Positions 35,217 to 53,626 of a stretch of 64,000 nt of DNA are shown piece by piece. Under the pieces are notes generated by a model. That model saw only the letters and a list, made by a program, of their open reading frames with translations. It made no database searches and had not been told where the DNA came from. The stretch's first letter is position 1. Every line of letters begins with the position of its first letter. The translations under genes were made by a program, and so were the position numbers. This DNA is from Halomonas sp. JB37 (GTDB lineage Bacteria; Pseudomonadota; Gammaproteobacteria; Pseudomonadales; Halomonadaceae). The DNA lies in the NCBI RefSeq assembly GCF_002332255.1, contig NZ_NRGW01000001.1, positions 3,410,001-3,474,000 of the forward strand, in the 5' to 3' direction.

Positions 35217-35524
35217 GCTCCTGAGAAAGTCACTTCAAGAAGCTATCAGCGCCTTCCAGTAGGGGTAAAATACTAAGTTAATGTCGCTCGATATCTTTTA
35301 GATATCAAAGATAGTTGCGTTTGGTTCCCTGTTAGACTACCTCCGTGATTTATCGACGATGAATGGAGGTAGGCCGCCGCCCCCCCAGCTTCACTTTGGT
35401 CAGAATGCCATGCGTCAACTATACTGCGCACTAACGAATATGACGTCGTTCCCTGACGTGTTTTGGCACGAGCAGCTAACATTTCAGGTACATCCATTAG
35501 CTTGATCAGCATAAGGAGATTGCC
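35217..35524. other. Spacer with no recognised gene
   Basis: The 308 bases between the M24 gene and the DUF2231 gene should hold the promoters of both divergent units. I see only two GATATC palindromes five bases apart (35290-35306) and an AAGGAG site belonging to the DUF2231 gene. Confidence 0.5.
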
Positions 35525-35953
35525 GTGATAGCCACCGCCGACCGCACTTATCGACGCGGGTTACATCCGCTTCATGCCGTACTGCTTGCCGGAATGATTC
35601 CCCTTTTCCTGGGCGCCGCGCTGAGCGATTACGCCTACTCATCGAACTTCCATATACAGTGGAGCACCTTTTCTTCCTGGCTTATTGCAGGAGGGCTCGT
35701 TTTCAACGGCTTGGCGTTGCTCGCCGCCCTTATTGGCCTGTTCAGCGCTGACGGCCGTCGTGGCCTTTCGCTGATTTACGTTGCCCTGCTGCTGATCACG
35801 TGGTTCGTTGGTTTTATTAACGCGCTGGTTCATGCACGAGATGCCTGGGCCATGATGCCGACCGGCTTAATTCTTTCGATCGTTGTTACCGTGCTGGCTT
35901 GCGCGGCGACTTGGGTCGGTTTCTCACGTCTCAGCGCCGAGGGTAAGCCATGA
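35525..35953 (+). CDS. DUF2231 small membrane protein
   Basis: A 142-residue protein with four hydrophobic helices and the family's HPLHAVLLAGMIPLFLGAALSDYAY N-terminal segment, where the conserved His residues near the membrane boundary could bind heme or metal. The start is GTG with AAGGAGATT upstream. Its stop overlaps the start of the dehydrogenase gene (ATGA), so the products are made together; a role as membrane partner or electron acceptor for that dehydrogenase is inferred. Confidence 0.8.
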   Translation: MIATADRTYRRGLHPLHAVLLAGMIPLFLGAALSDYAYSSNFHIQWSTFSSWLIAGGLVFNGLALLAALIGLFSADGRRGLSLIYVALLLITWFVGFINALVHARDAWAMMPTGLILSIVVTVLACAATWVGFSRLSAEGKP

Positions 35954-37254
35954 AAGTGTCTAATCTCGTTTATGTCAGCACGCTTTCGGTGTTACTGGGA
36001 GCCAGTGGCAGCAGCGTCGCTCAATCGGAACAGCCGTATGGCGCTAACCCGACGCTGCCCGAGCCGCAGCGCGGGCTGTTGCCTAACATGACCGTGCCTG
36101 AACAAGCAGAATGGGGCGATCAACAGCCCATCGTACCCGAAGGCTATTCGATCACGGCGATCGCCACCGATCTGAAAGTACCGCGCCAGACTATCGTGCT
36201 CCCTAATGGCGACATTCTGGTGGCAGAAGGCAAAGGCGGCGGTGAAGCGCCAAAATCAAGACCGAAGGATTTTATCGCTGGATTAATTCAGGCACGCGGC
36301 ACCACCTCGGTTGAGAGTGGTAATCGGCTAACGCTGCTGCGTGACGCTGATGGTGACGGCACCTATGAAGAGCAAACGGTGTTTGCCGAGAATCTCAACG
36401 CGCCTTACGGGCTAGCATTGGTGGATGACAACATTTACGTCGCCAACCAAGATGCGCTTGTCCGTTTCGACTATGAGGAAGGTCAGACCGAAGCCAGCGG
36501 CCCACCAGAAGTCGTGACACTGCTTCCGTCGGCGATTAATCACCACTGGACCAAATCACTGACCGCTAGCGCTAACGGGCGCTTTCTTTATGTTGGTATT
36601 GGCTCCAATAGCAATATCACCGAGCGAGGCATGGAAGCCGAGGTCGACCGCGCTGAAATCTGGGAAATTAACGCGCGAACCGGCGCTCATCGTGCTTACG
36701 CTACTGGCGTGCGCAACCCCACGGCGCTGACCATTCAGCCAGAGACCAATCAGCTTTGGGCAGTGGCGAACGAGCGCGATGAACTCGGCCCAGACTTAGT
36801 GCCTGACTATCTCACCTCCATTCAGGACGGCGGCTTCTATGGCTGGCCTTACAGCTATTGGGGGCAGAACGTCGATACGCGCGTTCAGCCGCAAGCCCCT
36901 GACAAAGTCGCATCCGCGATTGCGCCGGACTACAGCCTTGGCTCGCACAGAGCGCCACTTGGCGTTACTTTCTCAACGCCTGAAATGGGTGATGCGTTCG
37001 CTGAGGGCGCGTTTGTCGGCGAACACGGCAGCTGGAACAGCTCAGACCCGGTTGGCTACAAGGTGGTCTTTGTGCCCTTCAGTGACGGCAGCCCTTCCGG
37101 CGACCCGATTGATTTTGTTTCCGGCTTTCTCACCGAAGATGGCCAAACCCGCGGTAGGCCGGTGGGTGTCACTATTGACCCGGCAGGCGCCCTTATTATC
37201 GCTGATGACCTAACGAATGCCATTTGGCGCGTGACGTACGACGGTAATGAGTAA
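35950..37254 (+). CDS. PQQ-type sugar (sorbosone/glucose) dehydrogenase, exported
   Basis: A 434-residue periplasmic beta-propeller with a signal peptide ending SSVAQ (about residue 25). The propeller begins with PEGYSITAIATDLKVPRQTIVLPNGDILVAEG and includes the GVRNPTALTIQPETNQLWAVANERDELG blade and the EHGSWNSSDPVGYKV segment, all typical of soluble glucose/sorbosone dehydrogenase-like proteins that use PQQ. The exact sugar or alcohol cannot be told. No PQQ biosynthesis genes are in the window. It is translationally coupled to the DUF2231 membrane protein and ends before a terminator. Confidence 0.85.
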   Translation: MKVSNLVYVSTLSVLLGASGSSVAQSEQPYGANPTLPEPQRGLLPNMTVPEQAEWGDQQPIVPEGYSITAIATDLKVPRQTIVLPNGDILVAEGKGGGEAPKSRPKDFIAGLIQARGTTSVESGNRLTLLRDADGDGTYEEQTVFAENLNAPYGLALVDDNIYVANQDALVRFDYEEGQTEASGPPEVVTLLPSAINHHWTKSLTASANGRFLYVGIGSNSNITERGMEAEVDRAEIWEINARTGAHRAYATGVRNPTALTIQPETNQLWAVANERDELGPDLVPDYLTSIQDGGFYGWPYSYWGQNVDTRVQPQAPDKVASAIAPDYSLGSHRAPLGVTFSTPEMGDAFAEGAFVGEHGSWNSSDPVGYKVVFVPFSDGSPSGDPIDFVSGFLTEDGQTRGRPVGVTIDPAGALIIADDLTNAIWRVTYDGNE

Positions 37255-37282
37255 CGCTATTCTCTAGCGCGATGAGTAAGGT

Positions 37283-37301
37283 GGCAGCCAATATGGCTGC
37301 C
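37283..37301 (+). terminator. Rho-independent terminator after the dehydrogenase
   Basis: A 7-bp stem GGCAGCC / GGCTGCC with a 5-base loop, followed by GCTTTTCC. Confidence 0.75.
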
Positions 37302-37369
37302 GCTTTTCCCGCTGGAAAAATCACAGTAGCGGGTGATCAACAACGCTGTTTCTCTACAGAGGGACTTAT

Positions 37370-37879
37370 ATGATCGAATCATTAGAAGAGCTCGAAAAAG
37401 TTAAAAAGTCCTGTTACTCAATGGTAACAAAGAGCTCAACGCTTTCAGCGGGCGCTGCCGTCATTCCCATCCCAGGCCTGGATTTGGGGTCGGACGTGAC
37501 CCTGCTGCTAAGGCTCATTCCGAAGATTAATGATAAATTTGGCTTAACGCCTGAGCAGATTGAAAACTTGGATACAGAATCCAAGATAATGGTCATGACG
37601 GCGATCTCCAATGTAGGCAGCAAGATGGCCGGGAAGTACATCACGAAAAAACTGGTTCTATCGCTGCTTCAAAAGATGGGCGTCAAGATGGTCGCAAAAG
37701 GGACGACCAAGTTCGTACCCTTCATCGGTAGCGCTGTGGCTGGCGGCATTAGCTTCACGTCCATGAAGTACATAGGCAACCGCCATATCGAAGATTGCTA
37801 CCAAATTGCTTTAGCAACGCTAGAAGAAAAGCGGCTAGAGCAAGAAATCGTGATCGAGCCTGAAACCGAGCAGCACTAA
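37370..37879 (+). CDS. DUF697-like protein without a GTPase domain
   Basis: A 169-residue protein with two amphipathic/hydrophobic stretches: AAVIPIPGLDLGSDVTLLLRLIPKINDKFGLT at about 30-62 and FVPFIGSAVAGGISFTSMKYIG at about 122-143. The PIPGLD motif followed by a helix and a C-terminal glycine-rich FIG..AG segment is what DUF697 (YcjF-type) domains show, usually attached to or next to a dynamin-like or Era-like GTPase. None is present here. GAGGGACTTAT precedes the ATG. Function is unknown; a membrane-associated role is inferred. Confidence 0.6.
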   Translation: MIESLEELEKVKKSCYSMVTKSSTLSAGAAVIPIPGLDLGSDVTLLLRLIPKINDKFGLTPEQIENLDTESKIMVMTAISNVGSKMAGKYITKKLVLSLLQKMGVKMVAKGTTKFVPFIGSAVAGGISFTSMKYIGNRHIEDCYQIALATLEEKRLEQEIVIEPETEQH

Positions 37880-37900
37880 CCGCTACGTAAGGATAATGTA

Positions 37901-38197
37901 ATGCCCGCTTATGTCGTACTCACCCGAGAACACACTCACGACGCCCAGGAAATGGAGCAATACGCCACAAAGGCCAAAGCGGCCCGCGAAGGCCACGACC
38001 CGCAACCACTCGCCTTCTACGGCGACGTTGAAGTAATGGAAGGCAGCTCGATGGAAGGCGCTGTGATTCTACGCTTTCCCGATATGGCCGCCGCCCGCGC
38101 CTGGTACCAAAGCCCCGCCTACCAGGAAGCCCGCAAGCACCGCTTCCTTGGGGCTGATTACCGCGTGTTTATTGTTGATGGTATTGAAGAAGCGTAA
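37901..38197 (+). CDS. DUF1330 protein (ferredoxin-like fold)
   Basis: A 98-residue cytoplasmic protein with the DUF1330 pattern: AYVVLTRE at the start, GDVEVMEG in the middle and ILRFPDMAAARAWYQSPAYQEARKHR near the end, a dimeric alpha/beta barrel as in EthD/monooxygenase-like proteins. AAGGATAATGTA precedes the ATG. The last 13 codons plus stop are exactly duplicated at 46005-46048, with the block 38200-46048 in between. Its original terminator now appears to lie beyond that block. Confidence 0.85.
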   Translation: MPAYVVLTREHTHDAQEMEQYATKAKAAREGHDPQPLAFYGDVEVMEGSSMEGAVILRFPDMAAARAWYQSPAYQEARKHRFLGADYRVFIVDGIEEA

Positions 38198-38199
38198 AG
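38156..38199 (+). repeat. Left copy of a perfect 44-bp direct repeat (island boundary)
   Basis: The 3' end of the DUF1330 gene, from GATTACCGCG to the AAG after its stop codon, is identical base for base to 46005-46048. The sequence differs at once on both sides. This is the form of an attachment-site duplication made when an element integrates into the 3' end of a gene and restores it. Confidence 0.9.
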
Positions 38200-38220
38200 C
38201 CTTTTTGCAGTAGCGCTTAG

Positions 38221-38266
38221 AAACAGAAAGGGCCATTCGTCGTTTAACGAATGGCCCTTTCTGTTT
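38221..38266. terminator. 20-bp perfect hairpin, bidirectional terminator
   Basis: A perfect 20-bp stem with a 6-base loop; A-rich on the left arm start and TTT-ending on the right arm, so it can terminate both the DUF1330 gene and the IclR gene. It lies just inside the left boundary of the island. Confidence 0.85.
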
Positions 38267-38379
38267 CCTACGTTACTATTTTCTTTACTTTCCATCCAAA
38301 AAATTTCGCTTCAAACGATAGCCTGAATATCCTTTTTTCTATCACAGCAAGAAGCCAAAGAGCAGGCCCCCTTCACTAT

Positions 38380-39063
38380 CTAAGGCATGGTCTCACGCAA
38401 GGCGTCACAGCTCGCTTGGAGTAGTGCAACTGTTGATTCGACCTTTTCATCGGTTAGCCGGGTAATTAACGCAGAAACGGATATTGAGCCTCGCATTACT
38501 CCATGCCGATCAAGTACAGGTAGTGCTATGGCAGCAACATCCGGGTCCCGCTCGCCCTTCGAGAAGGCATAGCCTTTAGCACGGATATCGTCATAAAACG
38601 CGCCTTCTTCCCCATTAAACGCCAAAAGAACGCGGCCTGTCGCACCCCGGTCGATAGGTAGTAGCGCGCCTTCATCCAGATGATGCCGAGCAGGCTTTGG
38701 CGAGTTAAGCCGATAAAGGCACATGCGCTGGCTACCCAAGCGGATAAAGAACGATGCCGTTTCCTGAGTTTGCTCTACCAAGTGAGCCAGCTGTGGGCGA
38801 ATCAGCTCACCCATATCGCCGGTATGGCGGAATAGATTCCCTAGCCGCCACAGGCTGGGGCCTAAAGCATAGGTGCCATCGCCTTCACGCACGATATAGC
38901 CAAAGCGCTCCAAAGATCCTATCAGCCGAAGGATAGTGCTTTTATACAGCCCGGTACGCTCCGCTAACGTAACGAGCGATAGCGATCTCTCCTGATCCGT
39001 AAACGCTTCCAGGATCGTTAAAGCACGCTCAACAGCTTCTACTCGATTTTGCTTTTGGACCAA
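38380..39063 (-). CDS. IclR-family transcriptional regulator of the island
   Basis: A 227-residue regulator with an N-terminal winged helix (RALTILEAFTDQERSLSLVTLAERTGLYKSTILRLIGSLERFGYI, about 12-60) and a C-terminal GAF-like effector domain (from about 80), including DRGATGRVLLAF and the later ISVSALITRL. The start is TTG with a strong GGAGGTG site 5-6 bases upstream. It diverges from the catabolic operon, and GTTCT-N7-AGAAC palindromes lie in the shared promoter, so it is very likely the substrate-responsive regulator of the island. Confidence 0.88.
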   Translation of the reverse strand: MVQKQNRVEAVERALTILEAFTDQERSLSLVTLAERTGLYKSTILRLIGSLERFGYIVREGDGTYALGPSLWRLGNLFRHTGDMGELIRPQLAHLVEQTQETASFFIRLGSQRMCLYRLNSPKPARHHLDEGALLPIDRGATGRVLLAFNGEEGAFYDDIRAKGYAFSKGERDPDVAAIALPVLDRHGVMRGSISVSALITRLTDEKVESTVALLQASCDALRETMP

Positions 39064-39085
39064 GCTACACCTCCATTTGCACTTA

Positions 39086-39160
39086 GTTCTACCTGACAGA
39101 ACGAATAAATTTTAAAATAGAACAGATTTGACATGCCAAAAACGTTCTGCCATAAAGAAC
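39086..39160. promoter_or_regulatory. Paired GTTCT-N7-AGAAC operators for the IclR protein
   Basis: Two 17-bp palindromes of the same form sit at 39086-39102 (GTTCTACCTGACAGAAC) and 39144-39160 (GTTCTGCCATAAAGAAC), 58 bases apart centre to centre. A further half site with the same CCTGACAGAAC sequence ends at 39180. Shared arms and placement between the IclR gene and the operon support a regulator-binding site. Confidence 0.65.
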
Positions 39161-39232
39161 ACCATTATGCCTGACAGAACAAAAAGGAACCATTATGGTG
39201 CTCATCAAAATTACAGCATTCGGCAAGCCCCC

Positions 39233-40450
39233 ATGTCTGATTTGTTAGAAGGGATTCGGGTACTGGATCTAACCAATGTACTTGCTGGTCCTTACTGCTG
39301 CTATCAGTTAGCTCAGCAAGGTGCCGATGTCATCAAAGTTGAGCAGCCCGGCAGTGGAGATTTGGCCCGCCAGCTAGGAGCCGACCCCGAACTAAATGCC
39401 CAGCTGATGGGGGTTTCATTTCTCGCCCAAAATGCCGGCAAGCGCTCGATCGAACTCAACTTAAAATCCGACCAAGGTAAGCAGGCTTTTCGCAAACTGG
39501 TACAGACCGCCGATGTACTGGTCGAAAACTTTCGCCCTGGCGTAATGGACCGGCTTGGCCTTGGCCATGAGAGCCTGCAAGCGCTTAATCCACGCCTGAT
39601 CTACTGTGCTATTTCAGGTTTTGGACAAACCGGTCCACTGGCGAAAAACCCTGCTTACGATCAGATCATCCAGGGTCTTTCCGGAGTAATGAGTGTGACA
39701 GGCGATGAAACGTCTGCACCACTGCGCGTTGGCTACCCCGTTTGCGACACCATCGGTGGTATGACCGCAGCTTTCGCCATTTCAAGCGCTTTGGTCGGAC
39801 GGCATAAAACCGGGCACGGTGAGGTCATTGATGTATCCATGCTGGAATCGATGATGGGCACTATGGGCTGGGTGGTGTCCAACTGGCTGACGTGTGGCAT
39901 TGAGCCAATGCCTATGGGAAACCAAAATACAACGGCGGCACCATCCGGCACCTTCCGCACTGGTGATGGTTTGTTGAACATCGCAGCGAATAAGCAAGAA
40001 CAGTTCGAGATTCTGTGTCAGTTGATTGAGCGCGTGGACTTGATCTCCGACCCACGTTTTCAACTGCGCGAAGAACGCAAGCGTCATCGTAACGCTCTAA
40101 CCGCCGAGCTGGAAACCGCCTTACAAACCGCCTCTGCGGAGCAGTGGGCAACACGCATGAATGCCCATGGCATACCCGCAGGAGAAGTGCTCACCGTTCC
40201 CCAGGCGCTTCGCCACCCCCAAGTAAAAGAGCGCGAATTAACACGCACTTTCCCAAATGTTATCGGCCAGACAAACCTTTCAGTCGTGCGCTCAGGTTTT
40301 CGCCTGGGCAGCGGCGACCCTGAACCCAAAACTCCGCCTCCCACATTGGGTCAGGACACCGATGCGATTCTTGCAGAGCTCGGCTATGACGCTGCCGCAC
40401 GCGCCGCCTTCACTCATCCAGACATAACAACCAAAGAGACGGAAAAATGA
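39233..40450 (+). CDS. CaiB/BaiF class III CoA-transferase
   Basis: A 405-residue family III CoA-transferase, which moves CoA between carboxylic acids through an enzyme-bound anhydride on a conserved Asp. The N-terminus LLEGIRVLDLTNVLAGPYCCYQLAQQGADVIKVEQPGSGD and the later VENFRPGVMDRLGLG and AISGFGQTGP are diagnostic. ATG 39233 (MSDLLEG) matches the family start; an in-frame ATG at 39167 would add 22 unrelated residues. The ATG is not preceded by a clear ribosome binding site, while a better one (AAGGAAC) serves a short overlapping frame from 39195. It overlaps the next gene by four bases. It most likely activates the imported acid as a CoA ester. Confidence 0.88.
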   Translation: MSDLLEGIRVLDLTNVLAGPYCCYQLAQQGADVIKVEQPGSGDLARQLGADPELNAQLMGVSFLAQNAGKRSIELNLKSDQGKQAFRKLVQTADVLVENFRPGVMDRLGLGHESLQALNPRLIYCAISGFGQTGPLAKNPAYDQIIQGLSGVMSVTGDETSAPLRVGYPVCDTIGGMTAAFAISSALVGRHKTGHGEVIDVSMLESMMGTMGWVVSNWLTCGIEPMPMGNQNTTAAPSGTFRTGDGLLNIAANKQEQFEILCQLIERVDLISDPRFQLREERKRHRNALTAELETALQTASAEQWATRMNAHGIPAGEVLTVPQALRHPQVKERELTRTFPNVIGQTNLSVVRSGFRLGSGDPEPKTPPPTLGQDTDAILAELGYDAAARAAFTHPDITTKETEK

Positions 40451-41283
40451 ATGAAGAGAACCGCCGTACCGCCGGTGAAGACTGGTGGTCTACCGATATC
40501 ATAGAAATGCACCCCGGCATAATCCGCTACCACGGCTACGCTATTGAGGATCTGATTGGCAAGGTCGGCTTCCCGGAAATGATCTGGTTGATGCTACGTG
40601 GCGATCTACCCAGTGCAGCCCAAGCCTCTCTGTTAAGCACGGTACTGATGAGCGCCATTGACCACGGGCCACAAGCGCCATCTATCGCCATTGCGCGCAT
40701 AGCCTCCACCTGTGGTGTAGGCATCAACAACGCCATGGCTTCTGCAGCCAACGTACTAGGCGATGTACATGGCGGGGCGGGCGAGCAGTGCGTGGCGCTA
40801 TATAACGCTATCCAGGCACGCTGTGAAGCTGGTGAGGATATTACCTCCGCCACTCATACCGAGCTTGCCAAGCTTAAAGAACGTGGCGTGCGCTATATCC
40901 CAGGATTCGGGCATCGCTTCCATCCCAAAGACCCGCGTGCTCCAAAATTGATGGAGGTTCTACGCGCCACTGCCGACAACAGCATCAATACGCATTTTGC
41001 CGATATTGCAGAAGAAGTTGAGCGCCAGATATCCCAAGGCCGCAGTCGCGTAATTCCAATGAATGTGGATGGTGCAACCGGCGCTATTTATGCAGCACTA
41101 GGATTTCCACCAGCGCTATGTCGTGGTCTGTTCGTGCTATCTCGTTCGGTAGGCATCATGAGCCATGCCTGGGAACAGATGCAGCGACCTGAGCGCAATA
41201 AAGGCCCACTCCCCCGCACCGAAACCTGGACCTATACCGGCCATGCTCCCCGTAGTGTTGAGCAGGAAGGCGACCAGCCATGA
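40447..41283 (+). CDS. Short citrate synthase-fold protein (citryl-CoA lyase-like)
   Basis: A 278-residue protein equal to the catalytic two thirds of citrate synthase, much shorter than housekeeping citrate synthases (about 430). The three catalytic residues are conserved: His108 in GDVHGGAGE, His156 in GFGHRFHPKDPRAP, and Asp208 in MNVDGATG. Proteins of this size and context are annotated as citryl-CoA lyases or citrate synthase-like enzymes and are expected to cleave or form a C-C bond beside a CoA ester. With a CoA-transferase directly upstream, cleavage of a 3-hydroxyacyl-CoA into acetyl-CoA and a 2-oxoacid is a sensible reading. It overlaps both neighbours by four bases. Confidence 0.82.
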   Translation: MNEENRRTAGEDWWSTDIIEMHPGIIRYHGYAIEDLIGKVGFPEMIWLMLRGDLPSAAQASLLSTVLMSAIDHGPQAPSIAIARIASTCGVGINNAMASAANVLGDVHGGAGEQCVALYNAIQARCEAGEDITSATHTELAKLKERGVRYIPGFGHRFHPKDPRAPKLMEVLRATADNSINTHFADIAEEVERQISQGRSRVIPMNVDGATGAIYAALGFPPALCRGLFVLSRSVGIMSHAWEQMQRPERNKGPLPRTETWTYTGHAPRSVEQEGDQP

Positions 41284-42251
41284 GTTATACGATTCTGGTG
41301 ACAGCCCCACGCCTGGCTGATGAAGGCAGGGATGTGCTGGAGCAAGCAGGCTGCCGCCTGCTATTCATCCCCAAAGGGGAGGAAGATAGCCTGGGTGAGA
41401 TAATGGCCAGCCAGCCCATTGACGCCGTCATCGCACGCACGCTCACGCTGAACAAAGCAACCATTGCATCCTGCCAAGGGCTGCGCACGATATCCCGCCA
41501 TGGCGTAGGCCATGACGCGGTAGATATTCAAGCAGCGGCTGAGCTGGGCATTCCTGTGACAGTCGTCGGTGATACCAACGCGCAATCAGTCGCTGAGCTA
41601 GCCATAGGCCTGATGATCACCGTGGCGCGTAATGTCTCGGATCTAGGCCAACGTATCAGTGCCGGAGAATGGCCGCGACAAACTCCTGGCTTACAGCTTT
41701 CAGGCCGCGTGCTGGGACTGGTGGGTTGCGGCACCATCGCACGCCATGTCGCCCGAATGGCCAATGCCATTGGTATGCGCGTCATCGCCTATGACCCCGC
41801 TCTTGAAGCCATGCCAGAAGGTATTTTTAAGGCGGCTAGCCTAGACGACTTGCTAACCAGTAGCGATGTGCTCTCTCTGCACTGCCCGCTGCTGCCCTCT
41901 ACCCAAAACCTAATTGATGCCGCAGCACTCGCGAAGCTCCACTCGGGTGCCATTGTGATCAATACCGCACGCGGTGGGCTCATTGATGAGAATGCCCTGG
42001 CCGACGCCATCATGGCTGGCCGTCTAAAGGGCGCAGGACTGGACACCTTGAACATTGAGCCTCCTCCCGAAAACCATCCTCTTCTGCGCTTACCCCAAGT
42101 GGTACTCACTCCACATGTAGGCGGCAATAGCGATGCAGCGCTAGCACTGACTGCCCGTGCCGCTGCCGAAAATGCCTTGGCACTGCTGGCAGGGCATCCC
42201 CCTGCGCATGGACGCATCGTCAACGAACACTTACTGGAGATAACTCAATGA
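41280..42251 (+). CDS. D-isomer-specific 2-hydroxyacid dehydrogenase
   Basis: A 323-residue NAD-dependent dehydrogenase of the SerA/phosphoglycerate dehydrogenase fold. The Rossmann motif is GLVGCGTIARHVARMANAIGMRVIAYD (about 145-171, Asp at the end favouring NAD). Catalytic residues are visible in order: Arg in NTARGGLID, Glu in LDTLNIEPP and His in LTPHVGGNS. Within the island it probably interconverts a 2-oxo and a 2-hydroxy acid. It overlaps both its neighbours, so the four enzyme genes form one translationally coupled unit. Confidence 0.87.
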   Translation: MSYTILVTAPRLADEGRDVLEQAGCRLLFIPKGEEDSLGEIMASQPIDAVIARTLTLNKATIASCQGLRTISRHGVGHDAVDIQAAAELGIPVTVVGDTNAQSVAELAIGLMITVARNVSDLGQRISAGEWPRQTPGLQLSGRVLGLVGCGTIARHVARMANAIGMRVIAYDPALEAMPEGIFKAASLDDLLTSSDVLSLHCPLLPSTQNLIDAAALAKLHSGAIVINTARGGLIDENALADAIMAGRLKGAGLDTLNIEPPPENHPLLRLPQVVLTPHVGGNSDAALALTARAAAENALALLAGHPPAHGRIVNEHLLEITQ

Positions 42252-42949
42252 GCACGACTCTTGATGGCGAAAACTGGCCTGCTGGCTTTGCTGTTCAACC
42301 ACGTCAAACCACGCTAACGCAAAAGCTGCTGACCGCCTTTAAGCAAGTGCCAGTCGCTCATGCAGGCGATGTGATGGGGCGCCATACGGGCGCAGTAGGA
42401 CTTAGCGCTTATCACAACGACCTTGGGCTCACCATGTGTGGTACGGCTATTACGGTACGCACCCGCCCAGGTGACAACCTCATGGTGCACGTCGCAATAC
42501 AACGCGCCCAACCAGGCGACATTATCGTTATCGACGGGGGCGGCGACCTTTCCACCGCAGTGATCGGTGGCCTGATGCGCACAACAGCGATTGCCCGCCA
42601 ACTGGGTGGCTTCGTAATTGATGGCGCGCTGCGCGACGTCGCTGAATGGGCCGAAGGCATTTTACCCGTTTACGCCCGCGGCCATGTTCACCGTGGCCCC
42701 AGCAAGGACGGCCCTGGCCAGATAAATACGCCCATTTCATGTGCGGGCATGACAGTGATGCCTGGCGACTTAATTCTGGGTGACGCTGACGGCGTTATCG
42801 CTATCCCCGCTAGTGAAGCCGAGGCGATTTTAAGCCTGTGTCAGTCCCAGGCAGAGCAAGAAGCGCGCATACGTGCGCAGAATGAAACCGGCAAGATCGA
42901 CCGCGAGCGCTTCGATTCCATCCTGCGTAAGAAAGGCTGTCCGCTTTAG
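42248..42949 (+). CDS. RraA-family aldolase/decarboxylase-like protein
   Basis: A 233-residue protein of the RraA/HMG-aldolase fold. The substrate-binding motif is visible as DIIVIDGGGD...GGLM and GGFVIDGALRDVAEW, where the Arg-Asp of IDGALRD binds substrate and divalent metal in 4-hydroxy-4-methyl-2-oxoglutarate aldolases. Such enzymes also decarboxylate oxaloacetate. RNase E inhibition (true RraA) is unlikely given the length and context. It closes the enzyme part of the operon and precedes the transporter genes by 74 bases. Confidence 0.83.
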   Translation: MSTTLDGENWPAGFAVQPRQTTLTQKLLTAFKQVPVAHAGDVMGRHTGAVGLSAYHNDLGLTMCGTAITVRTRPGDNLMVHVAIQRAQPGDIIVIDGGGDLSTAVIGGLMRTTAIARQLGGFVIDGALRDVAEWAEGILPVYARGHVHRGPSKDGPGQINTPISCAGMTVMPGDLILGDADGVIAIPASEAEAILSLCQSQAEQEARIRAQNETGKIDRERFDSILRKKGCPL

Positions 42950-43023
42950 CTACTACGTCAGCATACAACGTTACTTCAGCACACAACAATAAGCCGTACG
43001 ACAACATAAACAAGGAACACGCT

Positions 43024-43995
43024 ATGAAAAACAACGCCTTAAAATCTATCGCCTGCGCTGCATTGCTTATACTTCCGGCTGTAGGAATGGCCCAATCCTA
43101 TCCCAAAGGATCCATCGACTTTATTGTGCCCTTCTCCGCCGGTGGAGGTACCGATTTTGCCTCACGCGTACTAACGGAGAAGCTCTCCGAGCAGCAAGGA
43201 TGGAACTTCGTTATTGAGAACCGAGGCGGAGCGGGCGGCAACATCGGCCTTTCACAACTCGCTCGTGCTAAAAATGATGGGCAGGTGATGGGCATGGGGC
43301 AAACGTCTAACATGGCGATTAACCCGACACTTTACGCCAGCATTCCCTATGACTCATTGAATGATTTTACGCCTATTGCGCTAATTAGTTCTCAACCCAT
43401 GGTTCTAGCCGTTAACCAGAACTCGGCCTACGAAGATTTTGAATCTTTAGTCGCCGCCGCCAGAGAAAACCCCGGCAAAGTGTCCATGAGTACGCCCGGC
43501 TCTGGCACGGTAAGTCACCTGTCAATGGAAGTATTTAGCGACCAAGCAGACGTAGAGTTCATGCATGTACCCTACCCCGGTGCGGCCCAAGCAGTAACGG
43601 ACGCCATTGGCGGGCATGTGGACTTTGTTACTGCCAGCCTTCCCAGCTTATTGTCGCATATCCGATCAGGCTCATTAAAAGCGTTAGCGGTTACCTCGGC
43701 TGAGCGTAACGCGGCGCTACCCGATGTTCCCTCGATAGCCGAATTAGGCTATGAAGGTTTTGAAGCCTCCGATTGGAAAGCGGTGGTCGGTCCTGCCGGT
43801 CTTCCTGACGATGTAGTCGCAACGTTTAACGCCGCTATCAATCAGGCCCTTCAGGATGAGCGCCTGATCGAAACGATAGAGAGCGAAGGCAGTACGGTAG
43901 AGGGCGGCTCTGCTGATGAACTTGAGGCTTATCTGCAGGCCGAGTATGAGCGTTGGGCTGAAGCCGTCAGCACCTCGGGCGCGACAGTGGAGTGA
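43024..43995 (+). CDS. tctC: Tripartite tricarboxylate transporter, periplasmic binding protein (TctC/BUG)
   Basis: A 323-residue exported binding protein with a signal peptide (MKNNALKSIACAALLILP..., cleavage near GMAQS, residue 24). The BUG-family landmarks PFSAGGGTDFASRVLTEKL, VIENRGGAGGNIG and VPYPGAAQAVTDAIGGHVDF are all present. It captures a carboxylate or related small molecule for the TctAB membrane part. Ligand is unknown. AAGGAACACGCT precedes the ATG. Confidence 0.9.
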   Translation: MKNNALKSIACAALLILPAVGMAQSYPKGSIDFIVPFSAGGGTDFASRVLTEKLSEQQGWNFVIENRGGAGGNIGLSQLARAKNDGQVMGMGQTSNMAINPTLYASIPYDSLNDFTPIALISSQPMVLAVNQNSAYEDFESLVAAARENPGKVSMSTPGSGTVSHLSMEVFSDQADVEFMHVPYPGAAQAVTDAIGGHVDFVTASLPSLLSHIRSGSLKALAVTSAERNAALPDVPSIAELGYEGFEASDWKAVVGPAGLPDDVVATFNAAINQALQDERLIETIESEGSTVEGGSADELEAYLQAEYERWAEAVSTSGATVE

Positions 43996-44048
43996 TCATT
44001 TAAGGCCGGGCATTTACTTATTTGCTCGGCCTTATGGGAGACATCATT

Positions 44049-44501
44049 ATGCTAAATCGCGATATTGTTGACATTATTACGGGAATGGCACTGGCAGCCC
44101 TTGGCCTTATCATTGCCGCCTATGCTTCTACGCATTATAACCTGGGGACACTTCAGCGCATGGGGCCTGGCATGGTTCCTATGGGCATAGGATTGATTAT
44201 TGCCCTACTGGGAATAATGCTTTCCATTGGAGGCGCATCGCGCCCGCGTTTTCCGATGCCTAGCATTGAATGGCGTCCACTGACTGCAATCCTCGGCGGA
44301 ATCTTGCTCTTCTCTCTCGCCGTACCACGTGTTGGCTTAGTGCCTGCAATTTTCCTGTTAACACTGATCACTTCGCTTGCCGATAAGCAGCTGCGAATTA
44401 AGACGGTTTTGGCACTCATCGCCTTTCTCATCCTGGCAGCCATTTTGATCTTCCGCTTGGCACTTGGCATGAACATACCGATCTTCAGGTGGGCATTCTA
44501 A
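44049..44501 (+). CDS. tctB: Tripartite tricarboxylate transporter, small membrane subunit (TctB)
   Basis: A 150-residue membrane protein with four helices, low in conserved residues as is usual for TctB. GGGAG lies 8 bases before ATG 44049; alternative starts upstream (TTG 44022, ATG 44034) are weaker. Its stop overlaps the tctA start by one base. Identity rests on length, topology and position between tctC and tctA. Confidence 0.85.
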   Translation: MLNRDIVDIITGMALAALGLIIAAYASTHYNLGTLQRMGPGMVPMGIGLIIALLGIMLSIGGASRPRFPMPSIEWRPLTAILGGILLFSLAVPRVGLVPAIFLLTLITSLADKQLRIKTVLALIAFLILAAILIFRLALGMNIPIFRWAF

Positions 44502-46003
44502 TGGACTTTTTTGGCAATCTTTCGCTTGGCCTGCATACAGCGCTTTCACTTAGCAATCTGTTTTACTGCTTTGTTGGCGTGTTTCTAGGAACATTACTTG
44601 GCGTTATACCTGGTGTTGGCGTTTTAGCAGCCATTTCCATGTTGTTTCCCATAACGTTTCATATGGAAGTGACATCAGCACTCATAATGCTGGCGGGAAT
44701 ATGGTACGGCACGAGTTACGGTGGCAGCACGGCGTCTATCCTGCTTAACGTGCCAGGCACGCCTGCCAATGCGGTGGTCTGTTTGGATGGCTACCCTATG
44801 GCGCAAAAAGGTCGTGGTGCCGTAGCCCTCTTTATGACTACAGTGGCCTCTTTCGTTGGCGGCTCCATCGGCATCGTCATCCTGACGCTATTCGCACCAG
44901 TGATAGCACAATATGCACTGAGCATGGGCCCCGCTGAGTACTTCTCATTAATGCTGCTTGGGCTAATTGCGGCGACCGGTATTGCTGATGGCTCGGCAGT
45001 CAAAGGGTTCGTCATGGTCATGCTAGGCATTTTCCTGGGTAGTATCGGTACCGACGTTTACACAGGCACACAACGCTTTGCTTTTGGTATCCCGGAACTC
45101 GGTGACGGCATTAGCCTTGTAGCGCTTGCCATGGGAGTGTTTGGGGTCGCGGAACTCATTATTAGCGTTGGCAGTGTTAAGGCAAACCGCTTTAAATCGT
45201 CTGACTTGACGCTACGCGCCATGAAACCTACACGGGATGACATGCGACGTTCGTGGCTCCCGATGCTGCGTGGCTCAAGCATCGGCTCATTCTTTGGCGC
45301 CCTACCGGGAACAGGCCCCTCACTCGCTGCCTTCATCGCTTATGCGGTGGAAAAGCGCTCATCCAAAGATCCAAGCCGATTTGGTAAAGGGGCAATTGAA
45401 GGCATCATGGCTCCAGAATCCGCCAATAACGCAGCTGACCAAACGTCTTTCATCCCAACTCTGGCCTTGGGTATACCCGGCAGCCCGACAATGGCATTAA
45501 TGTTAGGTGCGCTCATCATCCATGGCGTTACGCCAGGGCCCGCCTTGATGACAGAGGAGCCCAGCCTTTTTTGGGGGCTGGTCATGAGCTTCTGGATCGG
45601 CAATATTATGCTGGTCATTCTTAACGTCCCCCTTATTGGAGTATGGGTGCGCCTGCTTGCCGTTCCTTATCATCTTCTTTTTCCAGTCGTATTGATGTTC
45701 ATTTGTCTGGGCACCTACAGCGTCAATAACAGTGCCTTTGATGTGCTACTGGTGATGATCTTCGGTGCCCTGGGCGTTTTAATGCGCAAACTGGCTTTCC
45801 CTGCAGCGCCCCTCATTTTGGGTTTTGTACTAGGGCCGATGATGGAGGACAACTTCCGCCGCGCCATGCTGCTCTCATCGGGTGATTTTGCGACCTTCAT
45901 TAATAGGCCTATTAGCGCAACCATCCTCTCCATTGCTGCCTTTATCATGCTATGGAGCTTTTTTTCCACGCTTAAAGCACGCCGCGCGCTTACTCAAGGC
46001 TAA
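44501..46003 (+). CDS. tctA: Tripartite tricarboxylate transporter, large membrane subunit (TctA)
   Basis: A 500-residue membrane protein with about twelve helices that forms the translocation path. TctA hallmarks are GVFLGTLLGVIPGVGVLAAISMLFP (about 25-50), the GGSTASILLNVPGTPANAVVCLDG segment near 70-93, and the pseudo-repeat FGALPGTGPSLAAFIAY near 265. ATG 44501 coincides with the tctB stop. The right-hand 44-bp repeat begins one base after its stop codon region, so the island ends with this gene. Confidence 0.93.
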   Translation: MDFFGNLSLGLHTALSLSNLFYCFVGVFLGTLLGVIPGVGVLAAISMLFPITFHMEVTSALIMLAGIWYGTSYGGSTASILLNVPGTPANAVVCLDGYPMAQKGRGAVALFMTTVASFVGGSIGIVILTLFAPVIAQYALSMGPAEYFSLMLLGLIAATGIADGSAVKGFVMVMLGIFLGSIGTDVYTGTQRFAFGIPELGDGISLVALAMGVFGVAELIISVGSVKANRFKSSDLTLRAMKPTRDDMRRSWLPMLRGSSIGSFFGALPGTGPSLAAFIAYAVEKRSSKDPSRFGKGAIEGIMAPESANNAADQTSFIPTLALGIPGSPTMALMLGALIIHGVTPGPALMTEEPSLFWGLVMSFWIGNIMLVILNVPLIGVWVRLLAVPYHLLFPVVLMFICLGTYSVNNSAFDVLLVMIFGALGVLMRKLAFPAAPLILGFVLGPMMEDNFRRAMLLSSGDFATFINRPISATILSIAAFIMLWSFFSTLKARRALTQG

Positions 46004-46004
46004 A

Positions 46005-46048
46005 GATTACCGCGTGTTTATTGTTGATGGTATTGAAGAAGCGTAAAG
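46005..46048 (+). repeat. Right copy of the 44-bp direct repeat
   Basis: Identical to 38156-38199. It is an orphan fragment of the 3' end of the DUF1330 gene, lying one base after the tctA stop and immediately before a terminator that probably once served the DUF1330 gene. Confidence 0.9.
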
Positions 46049-46049
46049 A

Positions 46050-46083
46050 GCAAACACCCCGCCTTTAAAAGCGGGGTGTTTGC
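46050..46083 (+). terminator. Rho-independent terminator after the island
   Basis: A perfect 13-bp stem (GCAAACACCCCGC / GCGGGGTGTTTGC) with an 8-base loop. It ends tctA transcription and, before insertion of the island, would have ended the DUF1330 gene. Confidence 0.85.
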
Positions 46084-46128
46084 ATTTGCAGCCTTAATGG
46101 CCAAACACGTAAGGGCTTGCCGCCTGCT

Positions 46129-47328
46129 CTAGGGCGCCTCGACGGCGGCACGCCCTTTGATGATAGAGCGGCCAAGCATCAGATACGCCACCAAACCACA
46201 GGCGGCCATGGCCAGAATGACCGCTTCAAGCGAATGCGGCAACATGGCGGACAATGCGCTCAGCAGCCCGGCAACACCGAACTGGGCGGCCCCCAGAAGC
46301 GCGGCGGCCGTTCCACCACTGGTGGGAAAGTACTCCAAAAAGCAGGCTTGGATATTCGGTGAGATCGCCCCCACCGTGCCGATGGTCAGCATCATGGCGG
46401 CCAGGAAAGCGTACATTGACCAGTCCATGAAGGCAGCCATCAGCAGCAAGAGTATGCCGACCGCCTGACAGCCCGTCGCCAACTGAAGAATGCGCAGCGA
46501 CGGCAGCCTGGAAAGCAGAACACGATTGAGAATATTGAAGATAAGCATCGCGACGATGTTCGCCGCAAACAGCACCGAAAAGCTTGAGGGCGACTGTTCG
46601 AAATGCCCCTGATAGATAAATGACGCATAGGTGATGAACATCATTAGGGTAGAAAAAGATGCGGCCTGCCAAACGATGAACGGTAGCGCCTGCTTTGTCG
46701 ACAGTACCAGCTTGTAACGCGCCAGCAGGCTCATCTTAGGGCTTTTCACTCGAGACACCTTGCCCGTGCCGGTAAACAGCACCCGCACCAGCAACGGCAC
46801 CAGCAGCACCGCGTATACCGCCAAGGCGAAAAAAATAGTGTGCCAGGAGCCTATTGATAGAATCGCGCTGCCCACGCTCGGGGCAATGCCCGGTGCCAAC
46901 ACCATGATAAAGCCCATCATCGAGAACAGTTTCGCGGCGTCGCGGCCCGCCACCCGGTCGCGCACCAGTGCCGGCACAGATACCAAAGTAAAACCGGCGC
47001 CAAGAGCCTGAACGGCCCGCCCGACGAGCAGCATGTTCAAGGAATCCGACATGCCGATGACGATGCTTGAAAGCGCAAAAATCGCCAGCCCGCTCATCAG
47101 CACCCGCTGTCGCCCGAAACGGTCTGAAAGCGCACCGCCGATCAACTGCCCCACCGCCATCGCGAATACATACACGGAAACGCTTAGCGATACCGCCTGC
47201 TGAGAAATACCCAGCGATTCGCCGATGACCGGAAAGGCCGGCAGATACGTATCCATGGAAAACGGGCCCAGCATCATGGTCATTGCCAGGCTCAGCACCA
47301 CAATGAAGGGCGTTTTAGATTGGGTCAT
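46129..47328 (-). CDS. Bcr/CflA-family MFS drug exporter
   Basis: A 399-residue proton-driven exporter with twelve helices. FSMDTYLPAFPVIGESLGISQQAVSLSVSVY at about 24-54 and the loop 2-3 motif GALSDRFGRQRVLMSGL are those of the Bcr/CflA (DHA1) group, whose members export bicyclomycin, chloramphenicol, sulfonamides or cysteine. Substrate is unknown. The 294-base spacer upstream (47329-47622) shows no gene or clear operator. Confidence 0.88.
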   Translation of the reverse strand: MTQSKTPFIVVLSLAMTMMLGPFSMDTYLPAFPVIGESLGISQQAVSLSVSVYVFAMAVGQLIGGALSDRFGRQRVLMSGLAIFALSSIVIGMSDSLNMLLVGRAVQALGAGFTLVSVPALVRDRVAGRDAAKLFSMMGFIMVLAPGIAPSVGSAILSIGSWHTIFFALAVYAVLLVPLLVRVLFTGTGKVSRVKSPKMSLLARYKLVLSTKQALPFIVWQAASFSTLMMFITYASFIYQGHFEQSPSSFSVLFAANIVAMLIFNILNRVLLSRLPSLRILQLATGCQAVGILLLLMAAFMDWSMYAFLAAMMLTIGTVGAISPNIQACFLEYFPTSGGTAAALLGAAQFGVAGLLSALSAMLPHSLEAVILAMAACGLVAYLMLGRSIIKGRAAVEAP

Positions 47329-47622
47329 AGAAGCTCGCGGTCAAAGGGCGTAATGATAGACAACCTTAGGTATATGATACCGAGTGTCGCTATCAAGGCA
47401 ATCATGAGGTATACGCTACTGGACGGTAATCGACAAAACACGCCGGCAGTCTCAATCACCGGTAGGCGGCTCACTAGCAGGGCTGCGAAGGTAAGGCGAC
47501 TGTTGATCAACTGTTCGATGGGCGGGACACATAGATGGGGCCACCATGGCAGCCCGCAACATTTACTTTAGCAGCTAATGCCGTGGCTAGTAACGCATGG
47601 ATATGCCGGAATCCGACCACCA

Positions 47623-53554: not shown

Positions 53555-53570
53555 GGATAGTTCCTTCAGG

Positions 53571-53626
53571 CATAGTCCTTCATGCATAGCTCTTCATGAA
53601 TAGCTCTTCATGCATAGTTCTTGCAG
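53571..53626. repeat. Four tandem 14-bp repeats upstream of the pump operon
   Basis: The unit CATAGCTCTTCATG occurs four times head to tail (53571, 53585, 53599, 53613) with one or two changes per copy; the last copy diverges at its end. The array starts 17 bases upstream of the adaptor ATG, inside the pump/regulator spacer. Response regulators of this class bind direct repeats, so it is a candidate AdeR-type site; it may equally cover the ribosome binding region of the message. Confidence 0.65.

What the first reader, a model, noticed from the sequence alone, without database searches (positions are those of the whole stretch)
38156..46048. 7.85 kb catabolic island with a 44-bp direct repeat derived from the 3' end of a DUF1330 gene
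The 44 bases at 38156-38199 and 46005-46048 are identical, and identity ends abruptly at both sides. The left copy completes the DUF1330 gene; the right copy is an orphan scrap placed one base after the tctA stop and directly before a terminator. This is what site-specific integration into a gene end leaves. But the block carries only metabolism and transport genes, with no integrase or transposase. So either the enzyme acts in trans, or it has been lost, or the duplication arose by another path such as recombination of a circular intermediate.
Basis: seen in the sequence. Interest (0 to 1): 0.82.

Follow-up and report, generated by a model that had tools for sequence, protein, structure and literature searches.

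The report
Gene cluster captured beside DUF1330 gene
A block of organic-acid breakdown genes was inserted in a bacterial chromosome right behind a small gene of unknown function, leaving a 44-letter scrap of that gene at the far end, most likely by homology-guided recombination with DNA from a relative rather than by a dedicated integration enzyme.

Summary
In detail: 38156-38199 and 46005-46048 are identical over 44 bases. A close relative, G035, has the empty site: its DNA matches the window on both sides of the block and runs through with one copy of the 44 bases. The 7.85 kb block is an insertion. Close homologues of its tctA (76-100%) occur in 5 of 275 family genomes, and in these 5 the cluster lies directly behind DUF1330 or, in G011, a remnant of it. 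In the window the gene is resident up to its stop, but the terminator behind it is of a kind found at a different DUF1330 arrangement, including the one that precedes the cluster in G057. A second species, G013, has the cluster plus a DUF1330 3' scrap, with different boundaries. No tyrosine integrase was found within 180 kb on the same contig in 10 genomes, though short contigs limit the view in some. Best reading: one homologous crossover in DUF1330 plus one illegitimate junction behind tctA. Site-specific integration is less likely but not excluded. The locus is a rearrangement zone with many DUF1330 remnants.

The parts
37901..38197 (+). DUF1330 gene, 98 aa, resident allele (94.3% to G035), the homology anchor
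   Evidence: Pfam PF07045 E 1.7e-23; identity to G035
38156..38199 (+). left copy of the 44-bp repeat: 3' end of DUF1330, stop codon and two bases
38200..38268 (+). type B terminator, foreign to the G035-like resident arrangement; marks the left junction
   Evidence: aligns with sequence behind DUF1330 in G057, G034, G079, G012, G074 and not with G035; 21-bp perfect arms
38380..39063 (-). IclR-family regulator
39230..40450 (+). family III CoA-transferase (start codon chosen by me; ORF list gives 39128)
40447..41283 (+). citryl-CoA lyase
   Evidence: NCBIfam NF004864, 407.5 bits against cut-off 261
41280..42251 (+). D-2-hydroxyacid dehydrogenase family protein
42248..42949 (+). RraA-like protein
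   Evidence: PF03737; NF004850 255.1 bits against 231
43024..43995 (+). TctC, substrate-binding protein
44022..44501 (+). TctB
44489..46003 (+). TctA
   Evidence: homology to G011 and G057 ends at 46003/46004
46005..46048 (+). right copy of the 44-bp repeat: orphan 3' end of the resident DUF1330
   Evidence: contiguous with G035
46049..46083 (+). type A terminator, the resident one behind DUF1330, now behind tctA
   Evidence: aligns with G035; terminator-like site 46060-46078

Best explanation
DNA from a related Vreelandella/Halomonas strain that carried DUF1330, a type B terminator and the citryl-CoA lyase/Tct cluster entered a cell with the order hyp169 - DUF1330 - type A terminator - MFS gene. 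The incoming DUF1330 paired with the resident one, and a homologous crossover joined them at or just before the stop codon, so the resident gene stayed whole but received the donor's terminator and cargo. This is homology-facilitated illegitimate recombination. Shown: the insertion, the chimeric left junction, the end of cargo homology at the tctA stop, the repeated association of the cluster with DUF1330. Inferred: how the DNA came in, RecA dependence, that it was a single event, and the identity of the donor.
For: Empty site in G035 with exactly one copy of the 44 bases. Resident allele up to the stop (hyp169 93.9%, DUF1330 94.3%, 44 bases 95.5% to G035) and foreign sequence behind it. In the 5 of 275 family genomes with a close tctA homologue the cluster lies behind DUF1330 or a remnant, in differing surroundings. 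By a loose pattern 10 of 65 distinct loci have the type B terminator; in the 9 others hyp169 is not the gene next to DUF1330, so the window alone joins the two arrangements. G013 is a second case with a scrap of a different allele and different boundaries. No tyrosine integrase within 180 kb on the same contig in 10 of 10 genomes. The same scheme was proposed for Vibrio T6SS modules (PMC5361080, passages).
Against: The crossover lies at the very end of the homology, where an att core would also put it. Several remnants keep only the 3' end of the gene, and breakpoints gather weakly at gene positions 236-256 (6 of 15 in 21 bases, scan p 0.02; 5 of 12, p 0.05), which hints at a preferred site. 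The donor is unknown and no clear microhomology is seen at the right junction. comEC and dprA families are present but ring in most control genomes too, so they do not show competence. Serine recombinases were not searched.
Confidence: 0.6

Rival explanations
1. Site-specific integration: the DUF1330 3' end is an attB, the block is an element whose integrase is lost or acts in trans, and the two 44-bp copies are attL and attR.
For: Exact repeat at a gene end that restores the gene; a clean empty site; G013, with the same cluster, also has a 3' scrap; weak gathering of breakpoints at 236-256.
Against: Scrap starts and cargo ends differ between G000 and G013. In G013 the whole DUF1330 resembles that of G023, not only its 3' end. 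Remnants elsewhere are internal pieces or of other lengths. No integrase in the block or within 180 kb on the same contig in 10 genomes.
Confidence: 0.18
2. Two steps: the cluster first lay between two full DUF1330 copies (by duplication or by a circle integrating through DUF1330), and the second copy was later cut down to its last 44 bases by a deletion that ended behind tctA.
For: Pairs of full copies exist in G079 (second with in-frame stops) and G014, and shortened second copies in G012, G074, G050 and others. In G069 a copy was cut to its 3' end without any cargo next to it.
Against: Needs an extra event; no strain with the cluster between two full copies was found among the five genomes that carry it; the two 44-bp copies are still identical.
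Confidence: 0.15
3. The block is ancestral at this site and G035 lost it by recombination between the two 44-bp copies.
For: Such a deletion would recreate exactly the site seen in G035; the cluster-DUF1330 neighbourhood is old (tctA 76-77% in G013 and G023).
Against: By a loose pattern, 20 of 65 distinct loci have a type A-like terminator straight behind DUF1330, without the cluster; the repeat copies are identical, which suits a recent origin.
Confidence: 0.06

Closest known systems
Homology-facilitated illegitimate recombination (E. coli conjugation paper PMC3240628: start of abstract in a search listing)
   Same: Homology on one side, illegitimate joining on the other, foreign DNA gained without a recombinase.
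   Different: Known from transformation or conjugation experiments; here inferred from genome comparison, and with a short duplication of the anchor's end.
Effector-immunity module displacement in Vibrio cholerae T6SS clusters (PMC5361080, 12 passages seen)
   Same: A conserved anchor on one side, new module inserted, old gene parts left downstream as remnants; the authors suggest the same recombination type and found no evidence of an integrase.
   Different: There toxin-immunity genes with an evident selective reason; here an ordinary catabolic cluster behind a DUF1330 gene, and only scraps of the anchor are left.
Genomic islands integrated into the 3' end of a gene by a tyrosine recombinase (recalled)
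   Same: Direct repeat from a gene end, the gene restored, a clean empty site in a relative.
   Different: No integrase in or near the block, boundaries differ between insertions of the same cargo.

Membership tests
Homology-facilitated illegitimate recombination product | Homology between donor and recipient at one junction | tested here: met
   Relatives with the cluster have DUF1330 plus a type B terminator next to it (G057 full; G011 remnant); the window's left junction joins the resident DUF1330 to that kind of terminator
Homology-facilitated illegitimate recombination product | No extended homology at the other junction | tested here: met
   Sequence behind tctA in G057 and G011 shows only scattered matches with the DUF1330 sequence at 46005 (read by eye)
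Homology-facilitated illegitimate recombination product | RecA-dependent uptake of foreign DNA | not testable with these tools
   Needs a bench test; comEC and dprA families present, which is no proof
Tyrosine-recombinase genomic island | Direct repeats (attL/attR) at a gene end and an empty site | tested here: met
Tyrosine-recombinase genomic island | Integrase gene in the element | tested here: not met
   None among the eight proteins of the block; none within 180 kb on the same contig in 10 of 10 genomes, contigs of 30-397 kb in five of them
Tyrosine-recombinase genomic island | Same core boundaries in independent insertions | tested here: not met
   G000 and G013 differ; only two cases with this cargo
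Transposon | Transposase and terminal inverted repeats | tested here: not met
   No transposase in the block; no inverted repeat of 20 bases or more joins its two ends

The most novel reading that the evidence does not exclude
The last 60 or so bases of DUF1330 are a genus-wide preferred recombination site, acted on by a recombinase encoded elsewhere or favoured by the DNA itself, so that cargo without any mobility gene is repeatedly loaded and unloaded behind this gene.
Probability: 0.12. Interest if true: 0.65.

Novelty: new member of a known kind. Interest (0 to 1): 0.38.

Why it matters
It shows, with an empty site, relatives that carry the cargo and a second insertion, how a metabolic cluster can spread between species without a mobility gene by using a small conserved gene as anchor. 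An exact gene-end repeat, often taken as an integrase footprint, can probably arise without one; island finders that rely on such repeats should compare boundaries in relatives.

Tried and rejected
Plasmid origin: in 72,556 plasmid records 183 had a match but none covered 80% of the query; 182 of the 183 best places were 60-80% identical and one 80-90%; the listed ones are Tct or CoA-transferase/lyase pieces (20 rows shown).

Tyrosine integrase near the site: not found in 10 of 10 genomes; nearest on the same contig about 190 kb away in G026 and over 300 kb in G000, G035, G050 and G074; no hit on the site's contig in G011, G012, G014, G057 and G079 (contigs of 356, 30, 81, 397 and 305 kb). Serine recombinases and transposases were not searched genome-wide.

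Fixed att core: judged unlikely from unequal boundaries, though a weak gathering of breakpoints at 236-256 remains.

Microhomology at the right junction: only scattered matches, not used as evidence. An empty site for G013 was looked for in the loci held and not found.

Papers: DUF1330 with 'integration site' 0 papers; DUF1330 with Halomonas 0 papers; Halomonas with 'natural transformation' and 'competence genes' 1 review, listing only; two listings on the recombination type. No structure was predicted; the substrate of the cluster was not pursued beyond family names.

Full report
What was checked. No third place in the own 3.8 Mb genome matched at E<=0.001 apart from the hairpin's own reverse strand, and the exact 44 bases are in none of the fetched loci except those of the own genome. 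Chance is excluded. The left copy completes a 98-aa DUF1330 gene; the right one follows the tctA stop after one base.

The block is an insertion. In G035, whose DUF1330 is the closest found (94% identical, next best 87%), window bases 35413-38199 and 46005-47403 are contiguous at about 93% identity and overlap by exactly the 44 bases. The flanking gene hyp169 is 93.9%, DUF1330 94.3% and the 44 bases 95.5% identical to G035, so the gene looks resident right up to its stop codon. Behind the stop, the window's left side (38200-38268) does not align with G035 but with the sequence behind DUF1330 in G057, G034, G079, G012 and G074. The right side (46049 on) does align with G035. So the left junction is chimeric: resident gene, foreign terminator.

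Where the cargo is found. A search with tctA and 97 bases behind it over 275 genomes of the family at E<=1e-20 gave 20 genomes; five have a close homologue along most of the gene: G000 itself, G011 (92%), G057 (89%), G023 (77%) and G013 (76%). G035 and G028 matched only through the DUF1330 end in the query; the other 13 matches are shorter or weaker (63-73%). In the five, the cluster has the same gene order, and DUF1330 or a remnant lies next to IclR: full in G000, G057, G013 and G023, a remnant of profile positions 106-243 in G011. From matching contig lengths and places, G013 corresponds to Halomonas dongshanensis (L117), G023 to Vreelandella malpeensis (L128), G057 to a MAG of Halomonas sp. 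(L096) and G011 to Halomonas citrativorans (L093); for G013 the sequence of L201 confirms it, the others rest on those lengths and places. The surroundings differ: hyp169 to the left and an MFS gene to the right here; a 225-aa and a 340-aa ORF in G057; w56511 and a 340-aa ORF in G011; a 241-aa ORF and a 612-codon open frame in G013. So cluster and DUF1330 travel together or meet repeatedly.

The second case. G013 also carries a DUF1330 3' scrap behind tctA, about 250 bases behind the stop and starting near gene position 238. Its full gene ends in VDGVENI and resembles that of G023 (VDGVDNA), while the scrap ends in VDGVEEV (translated by eye), so the scrap is what remains of another allele. 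No empty site for G013 was found among the loci held. The two cases share the logic, not the boundaries. That speaks against a fixed att site, on two cases only.

A rearrangement zone. Of 82 genus genomes, 68 matched a DUF1330 query at E<=0.001. Remnants or second copies near the gene: two full copies in G079 (second with in-frame stops) and G014; partial ones in G026 (72-184), G050 (5-102 and 177-297), G011 (106-243), G074 (209-296), G012 (241-297), G013 (238-295), G069 (236-297, next to hyp169 and without cargo) and the window; G055 and G009 show only a broken gene. In the profile search three further weak hits (E 0.14 to 0.96) are not counted; a reversed-sequence control of 1.31 Mb gave one hit, at E 0.79. 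The control was not repeated for the 20 stretches. Gene neighbours of DUF1330 differ widely from genome to genome. In 65 distinct loci a loose text pattern finds a type A-like terminator behind DUF1330 in 20, type B in 10 and neither in 35. In the nine other type B loci hyp169 is not the gene next to DUF1330; the window alone joins the two kinds.

Mechanism. One homologous crossover at the end of DUF1330 and one illegitimate junction behind tctA explain this in one event. The sequence that follows tctA in G057 and G011, with a hairpin-like repeat read by eye, is missing here, and the resident DUF1330 terminator now stands behind the tct genes. The same scheme was proposed for T6SS modules of Vibrio cholerae (PMC5361080, passages). 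comEC and dprA families are present, but they ring in 10 and 11 of 14 control genomes too, so transformation is only a possibility; conjugation would also do.

Against this reading. The crossover at the very end of the homology, the several remnants that keep only the 3' end, and the weak gathering of breakpoints at 236-256 leave room for a preferred site. The donor strain is unknown. Serine recombinases were not searched. The integrase search covered 10 genomes, and in five of them contig ends limit the view. G+C does not mark the block as foreign: 0.505 left, 0.536 block, 0.577 right, which suits exchange within the genus.

The cargo. An IclR-type regulator, a family III CoA-transferase, a citryl-CoA lyase (NF004864, above cut-off), a 2-hydroxyacid dehydrogenase, an RraA-like protein (NF004850, above cut-off) and TctC, TctB, TctA suggest uptake and CoA-dependent cleavage of a citrate-like acid; this is inference from family names and the substrate is not known. 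It looks like an ordinary catabolic cluster.

Noticed in passing
L119, L120, L124/L196, L126, L127/L185, L183, L195: In one lineage the order is DUF1330 then hyp169, the reverse of the window's hyp169 then DUF1330; G069 (L195) has both a hyp169 with a DUF1330 scrap and a DUF1330 with a second hyp169.
   Followed up: partly
L036 9067-9363: The second full-length DUF1330 copy of G079 is a pseudogene with in-frame stops, 4 kb behind the intact copy.
   Followed up: partly
L102, L110, L118, just behind DUF1330: The terminator behind DUF1330 is interrupted by sequence that looks like the end of an insertion sequence (TGAACTG...ACCCC; label recalled, not searched).
   Followed up: no
53564-53619: Three copies of a 28-base unit at 14-base steps (CTTCATGCATAGCT-like) upstream of a divergent gene pair.
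   Followed up: no
38220-38267: A hairpin with perfect 21-base arms behind DUF1330 was not reported by the terminator scan.
   Followed up: no
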